From positions 1-64,000 of the forward strand of contig VXNJ01000019.1 in NCBI GenBank assembly GCA_009840625.1: a stretch of 64,000 nt of DNA, in the 5' to 3' direction. This document shows, piece after piece, positions 1 through 5,941 of this stretch (within the stretch, counting starts at the first letter, position 1; every line of letters starts with the position of its first letter). Made by a program: the position numbers and the translations under genes. The DNA is from Chloroflexota bacterium (GTDB lineage Bacteria; Chloroflexota; UBA11872; VXNJ01). The notes beneath the pieces were generated by a model. The model worked only from the letters and a program-made list of their open reading frames with translations, did not search any database and had not been told where the DNA came from.

Positions 1-752
1 ACATGGGTGGGCTAAAGGTGTTGGCGAAGTGGACTATAGGTGGTGATCATTGACACGTTGTCATCGTAGAGGCAAAAAGACTAGGCCGGGACGTCTTGGA
101 TGGGATTTCACAATCTATAAATTACTGCCTAACCCATGGCGTCAAGTACTTTGCTGTAACTGACGGAGACCAGTGGCGTGTATATGAAACGCACAAACCG
201 GTCCCGCTGGATCAAAAACTACTGTTGGATTTCAGCATCTCAAGTGCTTCGCAGCGAACGACTATGACAATGCTCTGGTTTTGGCGAGCAAACTTCAGCA
301 CTGGCGATCCAATTGATGTAGAGTTGCCGCCAGAACCGCCTGGTCCGCGAATACCCGTTGTCGAGACAGGCCCTGATCTATTGGCATTGAGCGAGGTGTC
401 GCCAAAGGCCCATCAGCGCGCACCGCAATCGTTGAAGTTCCCCGACAGTTCCGAAAAAAGAATCAGACGCTGGCGGGAACTGGTGCGAAGCGTGATTGCG
501 TGGTTGGTTGAAACGCGGCGGTTAGCTCTAGTGGATTGCCCGCTAACGTCTCCCCGTGGCACGCATTATGTCCACGTACGGCCGGAGCGCAAAGATGGAA
601 GTCGATTCATTGACCCCATTCAAGTAAAGGGTCTGTGGATTGATGGACACGGTTCAGCTAGCGATCACGTTCGCATATCTAGGTACATACTCAAATCCAG
701 AGGAGTCGACCCGGGCACGGTATTCGTGCGACAACCCAAGCCCATGAACTGA
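1..752 (+). pseudogene. Remnant of HsdR N-terminal-like nuclease protein
   Basis: The open frame from 54 to 752 reads VVIVEAKRLG at about 57-86, followed by a 'DGISQSINYC...GVKYFAVTDGDQWRVYE' pattern. This matches the core of the type I restriction HsdR N-terminal (PD-(D/E)xK, ExK) nuclease domain and its Q-x-x-x-Y segment. The usual preceding D-Y strand (VDYRW, about 29-43) is in a different frame, closed by TGA at 44-46, and the VIVEAK frame itself has a TGA at 51-53. At least one frameshift therefore separates the two halves. A TTG at 96 could start a shortened 218-residue product, but it would lack the catalytic E-x-K. The C-terminal part (residues about 80-218) is not recognised. The gene runs off the left edge, so its full extent is unknown. 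The ABC-3C operon lies about 0.5 kb away. Confidence 0.55.
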
Positions 753-1273
753 ACATAAATCTCATTATGTTGAATGTACTGGCCGCAAAAAGGCGGACAC
801 GTTTCAATCATTACGAGTTGAACCATTGCCGTTAATCCAACAGTTTGGCCGGAATCACTTGCAGGCGTGAAAATTTACAAATCGGCTTAAGGCATTGTTT
901 TCACTGTGGTGGGTAAGGGACGAAGAATCACGCCGAAAGAAGGTAACGAAACATTTGTGTCGGGGACATGTTGTCGGTCAAGCCGTCCCTGGCAATTGCC
1001 CGGAGGATTGATTTTTGTGGATGGCCCTGGCATCGGTACGGTGCTGCGATGGAGCACGCTTCGTTCCCGGTTGACAGTGGGTAGATGTCCTCCGTTTGTT
1101 AGCCGAACCAAGGCATCAGCATTTGTTTCCACTTGTTGGGCGTAATCACTTTTGGATTTCAGACGACCATGCCCACGATGCTTCGGTACGCGAGTCTTGA
1201 ATAGGCGACTTCCGGACTTTCACTTATTGATTTCGTCGCACACGGATTTCGTGGAATCTAACCGGCCAAATTG
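753..1273. other. Gene-free stretch between HsdR-like remnant and ABC-3C operon
   Basis: About 520 bases with no convincing coding sequence. Short overlapping frames occur on both strands at about 887-1145, but they shadow each other, show no family resemblance and have no ribosome binding site. The sequence is visibly more AT-rich than the window average. It looks like decayed island DNA; no insertion-sequence ends or repeats were recognised. Confidence 0.5.
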
Positions 1274-3136
1274 CTACTCTTGAGAACTTCGGATCAGCCG
1301 ATCATCTTCGGACAATTCGAGGCGTACGTAAGGGCGAGCCCTCTCGGGTACCTCGTTGTCGACAACAATGACTTGGATCTCAGCGTGGGTCGACGAAATC
1401 TCAATCAACAAGTCATAGATGGCTTCCAATCGTTGTGGATCCAGCCCTTCGTGTCCGAGGTGTTCGCTCAATCCATCGATGATCAAGATCTGCGGAAGCT
1501 TTAGGTTCAATTCATACGCTGTAAGGTGGTGGGCCAACGCGTGGGAAACATTGATTAGCGTCGCCAAACCTGGTGAACTGACCTCGGCGAATGGCCGTCC
1601 ATAGTAGACAGGCAAATACGTATTGCGATCAATGTCCGAAGACTCTTTCTCTCCAAACTTTGGCGGCCTCAGCCGTTCCAGAATCTCGTTGAATCGGCTT
1701 TTGAGATGGTCCACTTTGTGATAACTGTCGGCGGTCTCCGCCAACGCGGCTTCAAGCTCCTGCTGAAGGGAATCTCGTTCGAATTTGAGTTGAGTTTCCA
1801 ATAACTGGGCGTCATCGAGTTTCGCGAGAACGTTCAAGTACTCTTTCAGTTTTTCGGACTCAGCGTACAGTCGGGCCCTTTGAGCCGACGCAGCAGCGAT
1901 GATTGCTGCCTGCTCGGAGACGTAGCTCTTTGTTTGAAAGTCAAGGTCTTGCCGCTTCTTGACAAGCTCACCACCCGATTCTTCCAACTGACGTTCCAGG
2001 ACGACGGTTCGCGCCTCGCGCTCTCGAAAAAGATCTTGAGTTTCGGACAATTGCTGCTCGACGGCTCCTAGTTCCGAGATCAATATCTCGCGCGAAAACT
2101 CAAGCGAGGGTTCTTGGAGACACAGGTAGCAAGCGTCCTCGGCTTGCCTGCTTGAGGCGAGTTCAGAACCGCAGCGCGGGCACACGACAAACTCGAGATC
2201 CGTCAAGTGCTTGTGCGAGACGACTGATCGAGTCAGCTTGCCGGACTGCGCTTCAAGTTGCTTTGCGAGTTCCTCCAAGTTGCTGAGCGATCGCTTTTCT
2301 GCATCGATCGCCGCCCGGAGTTGAGCGGAGAGATTCTCAAGCTCCAGGATTTCGCTCTGCAGTTGCGCAGTATCTTCAGTCTTCCTAGGCACCTCCGCCA
2401 ATGCCAGAACCTCACCCTCGACACGGCCAAGTTCATCTTCCACTTCCTTCAGTTCGTGCTCGATTCGTACCCTGTTCTCCAACTCTGTACCTTCGAAGAA
2501 AGTGTCAAAAAGAGCTTGGCGAGAACGTATTTCCCTCAGTTGACCTTGAACTTCTCGAATGCGTTCCTGTATCCGTGCTGTATCGAGATCGTAGAAACCA
2601 TATGTGATGTCAAAGACATACTTCCTCTTTATGTTCTTGTGTGTGTCGTGATGACCAAATACCGAAAACCCCAATTCGTTCTGCGCCAAATATGAGTACA
2701 AGAGGTAGTCGTTGATGCTGACTGGAGTTGGATCCGAATCGGGCCGCGTTGGTGCGGAAGGGACGGCGATCCGCGGGAGATTCAATCGCGCGAGCAACCA
2801 ATTCAAGTAAGTGTTGCCATCAGGCGATTCAGATGCTGGCAACCTCCATGTTTCGTCACCGCCTGCAATCTCGACGCGTGCATTCCTAGTAGTCACGGCT
2901 GGCCTCATGACTAAGTACGTCCTGTCGGCAAGCTCCAATGAACCAGTTACCGCGAATACATTTCTTCTCGCTTCGGAAGGAGGGCGTTTTAGTGAACTTC
3001 CAAGTAGGAAGCGGAGGTAGCGGACTAGCGTTGTCTTCCCGGAGGCGATAGGCCCCGTGATGATATTCAGGCCCGGAAAAAAGGCGATAGAACGATTCGC
3101 GCCTTCTAACCTGATTTCGTTTACTTGCACCCTCAC
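1274..3136 (-). CDS. SMC/Rad50-like ABC ATPase of an ABC-three-component (ABC-3C) system
   Basis: Predicted P-loop ATPase of about 620 residues. In order: a Walker A GPIASGKT at residues 28-35, a long coiled coil (about 190-305), a four-cysteine knuckle CPRC...CYLC (about 319-339) like a zinc ribbon or hook at the coiled-coil tip, a second coiled coil (about 355-485), an SSPGLAT signature-like motif (about 520) and a Walker B ending IIDG (about 552-555). The usual DE of Walker B is DG here, which resembles the ABC ATPases of ABC-3C conflict systems. Start choice: GTG at 3136 overlaps the upstream stop as GTGA and follows GGGGAG by 7 bases; a TTG at 3151 is possible but poorer. It is the last gene of a three-gene overlapping operon. 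Its role is inferred: sensing or clamping DNA and licensing the effector nuclease. Confidence 0.8.
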   Translation of the reverse strand: MRVQVNEIRLEGANRSIAFFPGLNIITGPIASGKTTLVRYLRFLLGSSLKRPPSEARRNVFAVTGSLELADRTYLVMRPAVTTRNARVEIAGGDETWRLPASESPDGNTYLNWLLARLNLPRIAVPSAPTRPDSDPTPVSINDYLLYSYLAQNELGFSVFGHHDTHKNIKRKYVFDITYGFYDLDTARIQERIREVQGQLREIRSRQALFDTFFEGTELENRVRIEHELKEVEDELGRVEGEVLALAEVPRKTEDTAQLQSEILELENLSAQLRAAIDAEKRSLSNLEELAKQLEAQSGKLTRSVVSHKHLTDLEFVVCPRCGSELASSRQAEDACYLCLQEPSLEFSREILISELGAVEQQLSETQDLFREREARTVVLERQLEESGGELVKKRQDLDFQTKSYVSEQAAIIAAASAQRARLYAESEKLKEYLNVLAKLDDAQLLETQLKFERDSLQQELEAALAETADSYHKVDHLKSRFNEILERLRPPKFGEKESSDIDRNTYLPVYYGRPFAEVSSPGLATLINVSHALAHHLTAYELNLKLPQILIIDGLSEHLGHEGLDPQRLEAIYDLLIEISSTHAEIQVIVVDNEVPERARPYVRLELSEDDRLIRSSQE

Positions 3137-3648
3137 AGCGACTCTCCCCAAGTCGCGCGAGTCACCTCGGGGAAATGCCGGTAGATGAAATTCTTTAGGT
3201 TGGTTCCAGATAGATCAAAGTGCCGTCGAAGCAGTTTGATTCGATCGGCGGTGTCTCGCCATGCCGCCTCGTCACCTATGGCGACCGCGATTGCGCGCCC
3301 CTCATTCGTCGCCCTATAGCCAATACCGCGATTGAAAGGAGCTGGTTGCACCAATCCTTTTCCGATCAATCTGCCGAGGACAGCGAAGTAAGCCGGGTCC
3401 CACGGACCGTACCGATAGCGAACCATACGCGATTCCAAGTCTGGTTGAGATTGTTCCAGTGCGCCCGACAATTCCGGCCGCCTGATCTGAAGTGCCCGAG
3501 TGAAGTAGCTAGGGTAACGGATTAGAAAATCGAGTTTGGCGAGCTTGGTGCGGCCCTCAAGCACCCTGTTGCCCCGACTGAATGCCTCTATCAGCAGCAG
3601 CAGCCGAGCTTCAGCGTCAAGTGACGGTTGGAATTCGTCAAGGGACAT
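3133..3648 (-). CDS. ABC-3C middle-component-like protein
   Basis: 171-residue soluble protein with no catalytic motif. It is helical and charged, with a YGPWDP motif near residue 100 and a C-terminal 'TNLKNFIYRHFPE' helix. Size, position and overlaps (11 bases with the upstream effector gene, 4 bases with the downstream ATPase gene) fit the middle component of ABC-three-component systems. That component is thought to bridge ATPase and effector. Family assignment rests on gene order and general appearance rather than a diagnostic motif. The ATG at 3648 is preceded by a strong GGGGGGAG ribosome binding site about 8 bases upstream, so translation is probably re-initiated efficiently inside the effector's 3' end. 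Confidence 0.65.
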   Translation of the reverse strand: MSLDEFQPSLDAEARLLLLIEAFSRGNRVLEGRTKLAKLDFLIRYPSYFTRALQIRRPELSGALEQSQPDLESRMVRYRYGPWDPAYFAVLGRLIGKGLVQPAPFNRGIGYRATNEGRAIAVAIGDEAAWRDTADRIKLLRRHFDLSGTNLKNFIYRHFPEVTRATWGESL

Positions 3649-4786
3649 CGATTGACTCCCCCCAACCGAACACGCATTTGTCAGACAAGATGCATCCCTC
3701 GCCCATCAAGAGCATTGGATCTGCGCGGACTAGTTTGTGACGATCTATGGCCGCGGCTTGGGTGCCGAAAGTGTTGAGCAAATGATTCCACATCCCAATA
3801 GCCGGATGCGGTGACGAACCGTGCATTGCCGCCGCTGTGGCTGCATGTGTATGAATGCGTTCTTCCAAGTCAACGACCAAAGCGTCAACGGCGGTGAGAT
3901 TCTGCGCCGAGCGCGATAGGCGATGGTGGCGAGCATTGGCCTGCAAAAAGCGCGCACGTTCGATTAGCTCCGGGGTGGCTCCTCCCAATATGAGCTTTTG
4001 AGTGAGCACAGAGACTGGCCCGCCACCCTTTTCTACGAATCGTTTGAGTAAAGGAATTCCCGAACTGCGTAGCACTTCGGCGACGCCAGGAAGGCATTCA
4101 GCATCCAATCTCTTTGCCTGGATCCTCTCTTCCGTTACGCCAGAGCGGCTCTCTGGGTGAATGACGCTTCGCGGCCAAGCCGCACTCAATCGTTGGCGCT
4201 GCATCCGCGTCTCGATTTCGTTTAGCAAGGACTCATGCAAAGCCTCGAGTTCGGGATGGGTTAGAGACGGAGCATGTTGGTGCAACAACCGCGCGTTTGT
4301 CGCGTGAATGTCAGTTCGATGGGCTGCACTCTCGTTGAGTGTCACTCTACGCAAAAAATCCTCTGCCGATTCGCGGGTTGCCCGGAGCTTTGTCATGACC
4401 ATCGGTACGAGCGGAGAGCGGTCTTGTTGGGGGCGAAGGGCGCCAATTTCGTTACCCGTTTTCACCGCTCCTTCCAGTACAAGCTCCAACGAATGATCTT
4501 GACCTCTGGTCAGCAAATAGGTGCGATAGAGCGAGCGTAGTGCTCCACTTTTCTTGGCGAAAAGGGCAGACGCCGTCCACAGCCCGCGCTCCGGGTTGCG
4601 GCTTTTTACCTGTAGAAACCGCCATCCGGTCTTAGTTTCTAAGGCGATGTCCTCCAGATATTCTGGAATGACTGCCACGATATCGTTTTCGCCCAACAAT
4701 GCCGACACGCAGAACGGAAGAGTCACTTCTGCTTGATAGCGAAATCTCGCAATCGTTTCGCTGCCATGGTCCCCGTCCGATATCAC
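3638..4786 (-). CDS. ABC-3C effector with DUF4297/Cap4-like PD-(D/E)xK nuclease domain
   Basis: 382-residue protein and first gene of the operon. The N-terminal 70 residues read as a restriction-endonuclease fold of the DUF4297/Cap4 type: YQAE (17-20), the acidic pair E45-D46, and the Q59-V60-K61 strand, giving the pattern ED-x12-QVK. Such domains cut double-stranded DNA in CBASS Cap4 and related effectors. The remaining ~300 residues are mostly helical, carry no recognised motif, and probably dock onto the middle component and ATPase. The start is GTG at 4786; the frame is open back to 4861, but no better start exists. AAGG lies about 12 bases upstream. Expected behaviour, by analogy only, is DNA degradation and abortive infection when the ATPase senses invading DNA. 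Confidence 0.7.
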   Translation of the reverse strand: MISDGDHGSETIARFRYQAEVTLPFCVSALLGENDIVAVIPEYLEDIALETKTGWRFLQVKSRNPERGLWTASALFAKKSGALRSLYRTYLLTRGQDHSLELVLEGAVKTGNEIGALRPQQDRSPLVPMVMTKLRATRESAEDFLRRVTLNESAAHRTDIHATNARLLHQHAPSLTHPELEALHESLLNEIETRMQRQRLSAAWPRSVIHPESRSGVTEERIQAKRLDAECLPGVAEVLRSSGIPLLKRFVEKGGGPVSVLTQKLILGGATPELIERARFLQANARHHRLSRSAQNLTAVDALVVDLEERIHTHAATAAAMHGSSPHPAIGMWNHLLNTFGTQAAAIDRHKLVRADPMLLMGEGCILSDKCVFGWGESIDVP

Positions 4787-4915
4787 GCCGGCACATGACC
4801 TTGACCAAGACGATTTGCATTCGACAGCGATCTTGGAAGATCGCTTTGTGCGTTCAGTTCAACGTCAGTTCCGCGAGGTATCAATTCATCTAACCAGATT
4901 GAATAAAGGTTCAAC

Positions 4916-5254
4916 CTAGACCGCCAGAACCATCAATGCCGACGATGATGAATTACCATGGACCACCATCCATGCGATTGCGTCAGAATTCTGACCGATT
5001 CTTCTATCCAGAGTGCCAACTGAGGCCGTTCGGCCGAGCGATGCTACCAAACCTGCGGCCTTGCTCGATTTATTGTCATATGTGCCTTTGAACGGAATAC
5101 ATTTTTGGCGCGATTGACCAATCCCAAAGAACTGGAGCCGTATCCAACGCGTGCCCGCGGCAGGGAGTGTGAGTACGAAGGCACGTCCACGCTTCAGGGG
5201 ACGGTTACCGACAAAGGGAGCAATCCCGCACGCGGTTTCCATGTGCCGCCGCAC
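4916..5254 (-). pseudogene. Possible decayed transposase fragment (IS110-like C-terminus)
   Basis: A 112-codon open frame contains GIAPF followed by K-R-G-R and, about 45 residues later, SSKAAGLVA. This loosely resembles the 'G-(V/L)-A-P-F ... RGRR ... GKPxKVALVA' order of the C-terminal domain of IS110/IS116 transposases. The surrounding residues do not fit well, and no upstream DEDD catalytic domain or element ends are visible. If real it is a heavily eroded relic; chance similarity is equally possible. Confidence 0.22.
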
Positions 5255-5650
5255 CGACTCAGCTCAGTTACGGCGAAGTCAAACGGACGGCCGGGTTCGA
5301 TGTTCTGGGGGAGTCGCTTATTCACTGCGAGCGCGTGAAGTCCAAACTTGCTGAACTCGCCGCATAAACCCGCCGCTTAAACCGCACGTGAATTCGGTCG
5401 ATTTGTTCAATTGCCAAACCCATTTGGTGAGGGAAGTTTTCAAATTGATATGCGGTCGACTCCGCCCAAATCTCAAATCCAATTAACTTTCCTTTGGGAG
5501 GCCCTGGGGGTTGCTTAGCCGTGAATCGACTGTAGTTCCTTGTGAGGGAACCGAGTTGACTAATTCATTTGCGGTTTTCTGTTAAAGCGCGACCGTTGCC
5601 TGACCGACAGCTGCATCGCACCGGGGTTGCGCTTTTGAATGGCGACTTGA

Positions 5651-5941
5651 ATCCGCACAATTCATGAGGTTGATTTTGAGCGGGACAGGCAGTGGCAAAC
5701 GAAGCTACAAGACGGTGACCATTTAAGCGTGTTGTTGGAGCATTTCCATATCGAATTTGAATTGGATATAACCGTGCTTATTACTAATGTCAGCCAAATG
5801 TTTGACAAAATTCCGTGTACAGCAATGGAATTGCGGCTGACAGCGGACCTCAAGTTCGCCCGATTGCAGTTTTTAAAGAACGCCGGCCCAGGCAGGCTTG
5901 ATCTTCTCGTTTCCCGCAAGCTTGCAACGTTTACCGCCTAA
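5651..5941 (+). pseudogene. Unrecognised short open frame, possible gene remnant
   Basis: From 5651 to the TAA at 5939-5941 the plus frame is open for 96 codons. It encodes a plausible globular composition (alternating hydrophobic and charged residues, few rare residues). Within it GTG at 5729 is the only reasonable start, giving 70 residues, without a clear ribosome binding site. No family is recognised. It may be the tail of a gene that has lost its 5' end, in keeping with the degraded surroundings, or simply a chance frame. Confidence 0.22.

What the first reader, a model, noticed from the sequence alone, without database searches (positions are those of the whole stretch)
1274..4786. Three-gene overlapping operon with ABC-3C architecture and a Cap4-like nuclease effector
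Seen: an operon of nuclease-like protein (ED-x12-QVK), 171-residue middle protein and SMC-like ATPase, with 11- and 4-base overlaps, in AT-rich decayed surroundings next to a restriction-protein relic. Known: ABC-three-component conflict systems combine an ABC ATPase, a middle component and a variable effector, some with PD-(D/E)xK domains. Inference: this is an anti-phage or anti-plasmid system whose combination of effector and zinc-knuckle ATPase may be uncharacterised.
Basis: partly seen in the sequence, partly recalled or inferred. Interest (0 to 1): 0.75.

Follow-up and report, generated by a model that had tools for sequence, protein, structure and literature searches.

The report
Ordinary Lamassu (LmuACB) phage-defence operon
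The three overlapping genes look like a Lamassu defence system, a known bacterial alarm thought to cut DNA when it senses an invading phage or plasmid, seen here as a new copy with small sequence differences in its sensor.

Summary
In detail: three intact, overlapping minus-strand genes lie at 4786-1274. They encode a Cap4-type PD-(D/E)xK nuclease (382 aa), a 171-aa middle protein and a 620-aa Rad50/SMC-like ATPase. Profiles identify them as LmuA, LmuC and LmuB (LmuB E = 1.6e-90). The six best Foldseek hits of the predicted ATPase are chains of Lamassu complexes. The three genes occur together in the same order in 13 of 13 loci read, window included. Vibrio Lamassu (DdmABC) already pairs a Cap4 effector with an SMC-like ATPase, and CPxCG-type zinc motifs are reported for many LmuB proteins. 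What differs is minor: the Walker B aspartate is followed by Gly where a review reports Gln, the H-loop His is missing, and the coiled-coil tip has four cysteines where the Gln-type LmuB rows have two. The 'restriction relic' is only weakly supported. Verdict: new member of a known kind, low interest.

The parts
3638..4786 (-). lmuA: Cap4-type (DUF4297) PD-(D/E)xK nuclease effector, 382 aa
   Evidence: Pfam Cap4_nuclease E 1.5e-10, 42.1 bits against a cut-off of 26.2; PADLOC LmuA E 3.1e-16 over residues 8-373; 11 of 11 rows of A1, window included, match Cap4_nuclease
4604..4663 (-). nuclease core Glu42 to Lys61 (E42, D46, Q59-V60-K61)
   Evidence: E42, D46, K61 invariant in 13 of 13 rows; aligned with E, D and QVK of 8zue chain A
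3133..3648 (-). lmuC: middle component, 171 aa
   Evidence: PADLOC LmuC E 1.5e-9; 11 of 11 rows of A3, window included, match LmuC models; Pfam MC2 only sub-threshold, 16.1 bits against 26.9
1274..3136 (-). lmuB: Rad50/SMC-like ATPase, 620 aa (GTG start)
   Evidence: PADLOC LmuB PDLC03862 E 1.6e-90 over residues 3-609; first six Foldseek hits are chains of Lamassu complexes
3032..3055 (-). Walker A of LmuB, residues 28-35 GPIASGKT
   Evidence: aligned; G28, G33, K34 invariant in the 10 rows of A2
2120..2182 (-). four-cysteine tip motif C319-P-x-C322 ... C336-x-x-C339 of LmuB
   Evidence: all four Cys invariant in the 10 rows of A2; two-Cys form in Gln-type LmuB
1472..1489 (-). Walker B of LmuB, residues 550-555 ILIIDG (Gly in place of the catalytic Glu)

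Best explanation
This is a three-gene Lamassu (LmuACB) defence operon with a Cap4 nuclease effector. Inferred from studied relatives: a dimer of the Rad50-like LmuB, with LmuC, holds LmuA in an inactive state and senses DNA ends or hairpin structures made by phages and plasmids. Activation releases LmuA, which assembles into a tetramer and cuts double-stranded DNA. This clears the invader or kills the infected cell. Shown here: the family assignment, intact genes, retained nuclease residues, retained Walker A, and co-occurrence of the genes. Not shown: any activity, the trigger, or the assembly.
For: Profile matches for all three proteins. The LmuB model (mean pLDDT 80.7) has chains of Lamassu complexes (9uxh, 9hqx, 9hqu, 9nyg; lengths fit LmuB) as the first six Foldseek hits, E 5.8e-19 to 1.0e-14, and Lamassu chains take VIA-align ranks 1-4, Z 28-33. 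The A2 profile matches chain D of 9ny5, a Lamassu entry, at E 1.1e-8 over residues 1-214. The LmuA model is poor (mean pLDDT 53.6); its first three Foldseek hits are chains of Lamassu entries, but at weak E of 0.17-0.27; VIA-align gives Cap4 and LmuA chains Z 8-9 over residues 2-243. A-C-B order in 13 of 13 loci. Mechanism from passages of PMC10586767, PMC12409362 and PMC12904381.
Against: LmuC misses the Pfam MC2 cut-off. No LmuA Foldseek match reaches E 0.001, and the first VIA-align row for LmuA is a HerA-DUF chain, tied with the Cap4 and LmuA rows. Walker B has Gly where the review reports Gln. Nothing was tested in cells. The operon sits near the end of a contig of a draft genome, so the context beyond it is cut off.
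Confidence: 0.95

Rival explanations
1. It is a distinct, uncharacterised ABC-3C conflict system that only resembles Lamassu, with a different trigger or output.
For: Single-sequence searches with LmuA and LmuB found no PDB chain. Walker B, H-loop and zinc motif differ from the Gln-type LmuB rows.
Against: PADLOC LmuA, LmuC and LmuB models match the three proteins along most of their length, and the LmuB model is nearest to Lamassu chains. The review counts ABC-3C within the Lamassu superfamily.
Confidence: 0.04
2. A CBASS or Hachiman nuclease module in which the Cap4-like protein is run by other partners.
For: The nuclease domain is shared with CBASS Cap4 and with 8zue, titled Hachiman; weak HamA match, E 0.034 for the window protein, and 1 of 11 rows of A1 matches each of two HamA models at 3.4e-4 and 9.9e-4.
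Against: The Pfam scan reports no SAVED domain for the protein; the adjoining genes encode LmuC and an SMC-like ATPase, not a helicase; the LmuA models score far better.
Confidence: 0.01
3. A decaying, non-functional remnant of a Lamassu operon in a degraded island.
For: Flanking ORFs scanned have no Pfam match; low-GC block at a contig end. One relative, L005, has its LmuB in two pieces.
Against: All three window genes are open, with E42, D46, K61 and Walker A kept; divergence is biased to third codon positions.
Confidence: 0.05

Closest known systems
Three-gene (type II) Lamassu LmuACB, including DdmABC of Vibrio cholerae and the Salmonella enterica complex (Lamassu entries 9hqu, 9hqx, 9ny5, 9nyg, 9uxh in the PDB)
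   Same: Cap4 effector (Vibrio), small middle protein, Rad50/SMC-like ATPase, in one operon; zinc motif in many LmuB
   Different: Low identity to the solved LmuB chains (15-16% in the first four rows); Walker B Asp-Gly where the review reports Gln; H-loop His absent and four-Cys tip, against His and two Cys in the seven Gln-type rows read
Lamassu operons on Streptomyces plasmids (e.g. NZ_CP108307.1, L044)
   Same: Same gene order in L044; LmuB 36-37% identical over 99% of the query in the best seven plasmids; Walker B Asp-Gly and four-Cys tip in L044
   Different: LmuA only 27-29% identical
CBASS Cap4 effector
   Same: Cap4 dsDNA endonuclease domain
   Different: No SAVED domain found; no cyclic-nucleotide sensing expected (inference)
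Mre11-Rad50 / SbcCD
   Same: ABC head and coiled coil of the ATPase; Cys motif at the tip (zinc hook of Rad50)
   Different: The adjoining genes are LmuC and LmuA, not Mre11; shorter coiled coil (review)

Membership tests
Lamassu (LmuACB) | SMC/Rad50-like LmuB with Walker A, coiled coil and C-terminal Walker B | tested here: met
Lamassu (LmuACB) | Small middle component LmuC | tested here: met
   PADLOC LmuC E 1.5e-9; 11 of 11 rows of A3, window included; Pfam MC2 sub-threshold for the window, reached at E up to 0.1 by 9 of 11 rows, MC4 by 2 of 11
Lamassu (LmuACB) | LmuA with an N-terminal effector domain such as Cap4 and a variable C-terminal domain | tested here: met
Lamassu (LmuACB) | The three genes travel together | tested here: met
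   A-C-B order in 13 of 13 loci read, window included; some of these loci are near-copies of each other
Lamassu (LmuACB) | Zinc motif (CPxCG or similar); reported for many, not all | tested here: met
   CPRCG at 319-323 plus CYLC at 336-339; definition
Lamassu (LmuACB) | Glu to Gln change in Walker B (reported as general, not universal) | tested here: not met
   Gly in this protein; of 22 LmuB rows readable there: 10 Gly, 4 Ser, 7 Gln, 1 Thr, 0 Glu. The catalytic Glu is absent as in the review, but the replacement differs; the review words this as a general, not a defining, feature
Lamassu (LmuACB) | Protection against phage or plasmid; LmuA tetramer on activation | not testable with these tools
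   needs experiment
CBASS with Cap4 | SAVED cyclic-nucleotide sensor domain fused to the nuclease | tested here: not met
   Pfam scan of the 382-aa protein at E up to 1 gives only Cap4_nuclease
CBASS with Cap4 | Neighbouring CD-NTase | not tested
   no profile search was run for it
Hachiman (HamAB) | HamA with an adjoining HamB helicase | tested here: not met
   the two downstream genes are LmuC and LmuB; upstream ORFs scanned up to 6783 give only a short-chain dehydrogenase

The most novel reading that the evidence does not exclude
The operon belongs to a Lamassu sub-type in which three features go together: Walker B Asp-Gly or Asp-Ser, no H-loop His, and a four-cysteine tip. Its LmuB would not hydrolyse ATP, and each chain would hold its own zinc ribbon instead of sharing one zinc between two chains, so activation would be a one-shot, binding-driven switch with a different kind of tip contact.
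Probability: 0.25. Interest if true: 0.35.

Novelty: new member of a known kind. Interest (0 to 1): 0.15.

Why it matters
It adds a well-preserved Lamassu operon in a genome of an unnamed bacterium. Its closest relatives found here are in records titled Acidobacteria, Holophagales, Alpha- and Gammaproteobacteria, which suggests movement between phyla. The Walker B, H-loop and four-Cys differences could help ask whether Lamassu needs ATP hydrolysis at all, but the system itself is already understood in outline.

Tried and rejected
Single-sequence searches of LmuB (E up to 0.01) and LmuA (E up to 0.1) against the PDB found nothing; profiles were needed. Besides the Lamassu chains, the LmuB profile matched designed coiled coils and nucleoporins, which I take as coiled-coil noise. 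The LmuC profile matched Atherin, a MarR regulator and an uncharacterised archaeal protein (named AF_1382; archaeal is recalled) at E 0.0012 to 0.48 over 36-51 residues; I draw nothing from it. NCBIfam gave no match for LmuA or LmuC and only matches far below cut-off for LmuB. LmuB had no match in the phage collection.

Of 151 genomes (the host and its relatives) only the host matched LmuB by sequence; for LmuA one further genome gave a marginal match at E 9.7e-4. By the PADLOC profile a genome of the host's family (G004, L012) does carry an LmuB, of the Gln type. That family search matched 146 of 400 genomes of the phylum, but the same search rings in 9 of 14 control genomes and many matches are short or weak, so I do not use the 146 as a count of Lamassu. 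In the loci from that search, with flanks of at most 1.5 kb, only L010 gave a marginal LmuA match (E 1.2e-4, 18.2 bits) and only L018 an LmuC match. The flanks are too short to say whether effectors differ there.

Rows dropped before alignment: copies of the window (L001, L007, L009) and hits of 200 bits or less (LmuA, LmuB) or 100 bits or less (LmuC). L002 and L003 are 98-99% identical in all three proteins, and L039 and L040 97-98%; L041 looks close to these two but was not measured. The 13 loci are therefore fewer independent cases. L039-L043 were fetched with LmuC, L002-L006 and the two plasmids with LmuB. Of 31 plasmids with a LmuB match I read the surroundings of two.

One Lamassu structure paper (PMC12663957) is not held; I saw only its citation. 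PMC10586767, PMC12409362 and PMC12904381 were seen as found passages, not whole. Searches for Lamassu papers were seen as listings with starts of abstracts; none of these shows the Asp-Gly/four-Cys difference, but that library lacks most structure papers, so this does not show it is unpublished. A guess that the near relatives are sponge symbionts (from bin names, recalled) found no support in one search.
Full report
What is there. On the minus strand, three genes overlap by 11 and 4 bases: 4786-3638 (382 aa), 3648-3133 (171 aa) and 3136-1274 (620 aa from the GTG; the mechanical ORF starts 15 bases earlier at a TTG). The longest open run is 646 codons, against a maximum of 233 in 300 shuffles. 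GC differs by codon position in all three. Purine runs like ribosome-binding sites precede the second and third genes (by eye, sequence). The consensus scan of 900-5200 shows no minus-strand promoter-like or terminator-like site; the plus-strand ones are no more than in shuffles.

What it is. The first protein matches Pfam Cap4_nuclease (E 1.5e-10, above the cut-off) and PADLOC LmuA (E 3.1e-16, residues 8-373). The second matches PADLOC LmuC (E 1.5e-9) and, below cut-off, Pfam MC2, the ABC-3C middle component 2. The third matches PADLOC LmuB (E 1.6e-90 over residues 3-609). Of the 11 LmuA rows of A1 (window included) 11 match Cap4_nuclease and LmuA models, and of the 11 LmuC rows of A3, 11 match LmuC models. 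Pfam MC2 is reached at E up to 0.1 by 9 of 11 LmuC rows, MC4 by 2 of 11.

Structure. The LmuB model (mean pLDDT 80.7) has a split head and about 260 residues in long helices between; the stretch with the cysteines is poorly predicted (block means 52-53). Its first six Foldseek hits are chains of Lamassu complexes 9uxh, 9hqx, 9hqu and 9nyg, of lengths that fit LmuB. VIA-align puts Lamassu chains at ranks 1-4 with Z 28-33, with Rad50 heads from about Z 23 downwards. Three of these four have an rmsd of 42-45 A, probably because of the bent coiled coil; the 9hqx row aligns 412 residues at 4.9 A. The LmuA model is poor (mean pLDDT 53.6). In residues 11-60 (block means 65-78) it shows a helix, a strand ending at E42, a strand from D46 and a strand to Q59, the order expected of a PD-(D/E)xK core (recalled). 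Its Foldseek hits are weak: the first three are chains of Lamassu entries at E 0.17-0.27, and none of 67 reaches 0.001. VIA-align lists a HerA-DUF chain first (Z 9.4), then Cap4, LmuA and Hachiman-titled chains at Z 8-9 over residues 2-243; this is near the level its notes call common. The profile of 11 LmuA proteins matches 8zue chain A at E 6.8e-4, with E42, D46 and QVK aligned.

Relatives. Five genome contigs encode all three proteins at 64-77% identity; their titles name Acidobacteria, Holophagales, Alphaproteobacteria and two Gammaproteobacteria. In one of them, L005, LmuB is in two pieces. Five IMG/VR contigs fetched with LmuC also carry LmuA and LmuB. Two Streptomyces plasmids were read, both with a 'dsDNA nuclease domain-containing protein' as first gene. 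That makes 13 of 13 loci, window included, with A-C-B order, though several are near-copies of each other. The seven plasmids with a LmuA match are the seven with the best LmuB matches (31 plasmids match LmuB in all). L003 has type I restriction genes (HsdR, HsdS) next door. Of 151 genomes searched (host and relatives) only the host has this LmuB by sequence; a genome of its family has a different, Gln-type LmuB (L012). The block holding the operon is 11 points lower in GC than the rest of the window. The operon was probably acquired horizontally (inference).

Residues. In LmuA, D6, G8, R14, Y17, Q18, E42, D46, K61 and C-terminal L360, G362, C371 are among the 15 invariant positions in 13 of 13 rows; Glu45 is not invariant. 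In LmuB, of 22 rows readable at Walker B, none has Glu after the Asp: 10 Gly, 4 Ser, 7 Gln, 1 Thr. The review gives Gln as the general state. In the aligned stretch, 14 of 14 rows with Gly or Ser have two CxxC pairs at the tip; the 7 Gln rows, the Thr row and one row cut short have only CPxC. None of the 14 Gly/Ser rows has the H-loop His, while 7 of 7 Gln rows have a His there. The role of the H-loop and the Walker B Glu in hydrolysis is recalled, apart from what the review says of the Gln change. Rows are related, so these are not 22 independent cases.

Mechanism. From passages read: LmuB is the likely sensor and LmuA the putative effector; all components are essential where tested; action is thought to be by abortive infection (PMC10586767). 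On activation LmuA is reported to be liberated and to form a homotetramer that activates the Cap4 nuclease (addendum of PMC12409362). DNA hairpins or ends are the proposed trigger (PMC12904381). I infer that this operon works the same way. Without the Walker B Glu, LmuB may bind but barely hydrolyse ATP, as the review argues for Vibrio Lamassu.

Verdict. The Walker B/H-loop/four-Cys pattern is a small extra that I could not trace in the listings and passages seen; the library lacks a main structure paper.

Noticed in passing
window 96-752 (+): 218-aa ORF at the contig end with no Pfam match; residues 96-211 match part of a 296-aa Thermomicrobium plasmid protein that has a sub-threshold HSDR_N match and lies next to ParB. 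It may be the cut or shortened end of a small HsdR_N-like gene.
   Followed up: partly
window 1-5900: Low-GC block (52.6% against 63.6% for the rest of the window) at the start of a 66,283-base contig, probably an acquired island cut by the contig end.
   Followed up: partly
L005 5500-7860: Relative of the operon in which LmuB is read in two pieces: a decayed copy or an assembly error.
   Followed up: no
L002 and L003: Operons 98-99% identical at protein level in two separate MAGs titled Acidobacteria and Holophagales.
   Followed up: no
L010 1306-3165 (-): LmuB-like protein with a degenerate Walker A and Asp-Ser Walker B, in a genome of the host's phylum.
   Followed up: no
LmuA residues 357-375 (window 3662-3718): Conserved C-terminal motif around L360, G362 and C371, kept even in rows 17-20% identical; no Pfam domain is reported there.
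   Followed up: no
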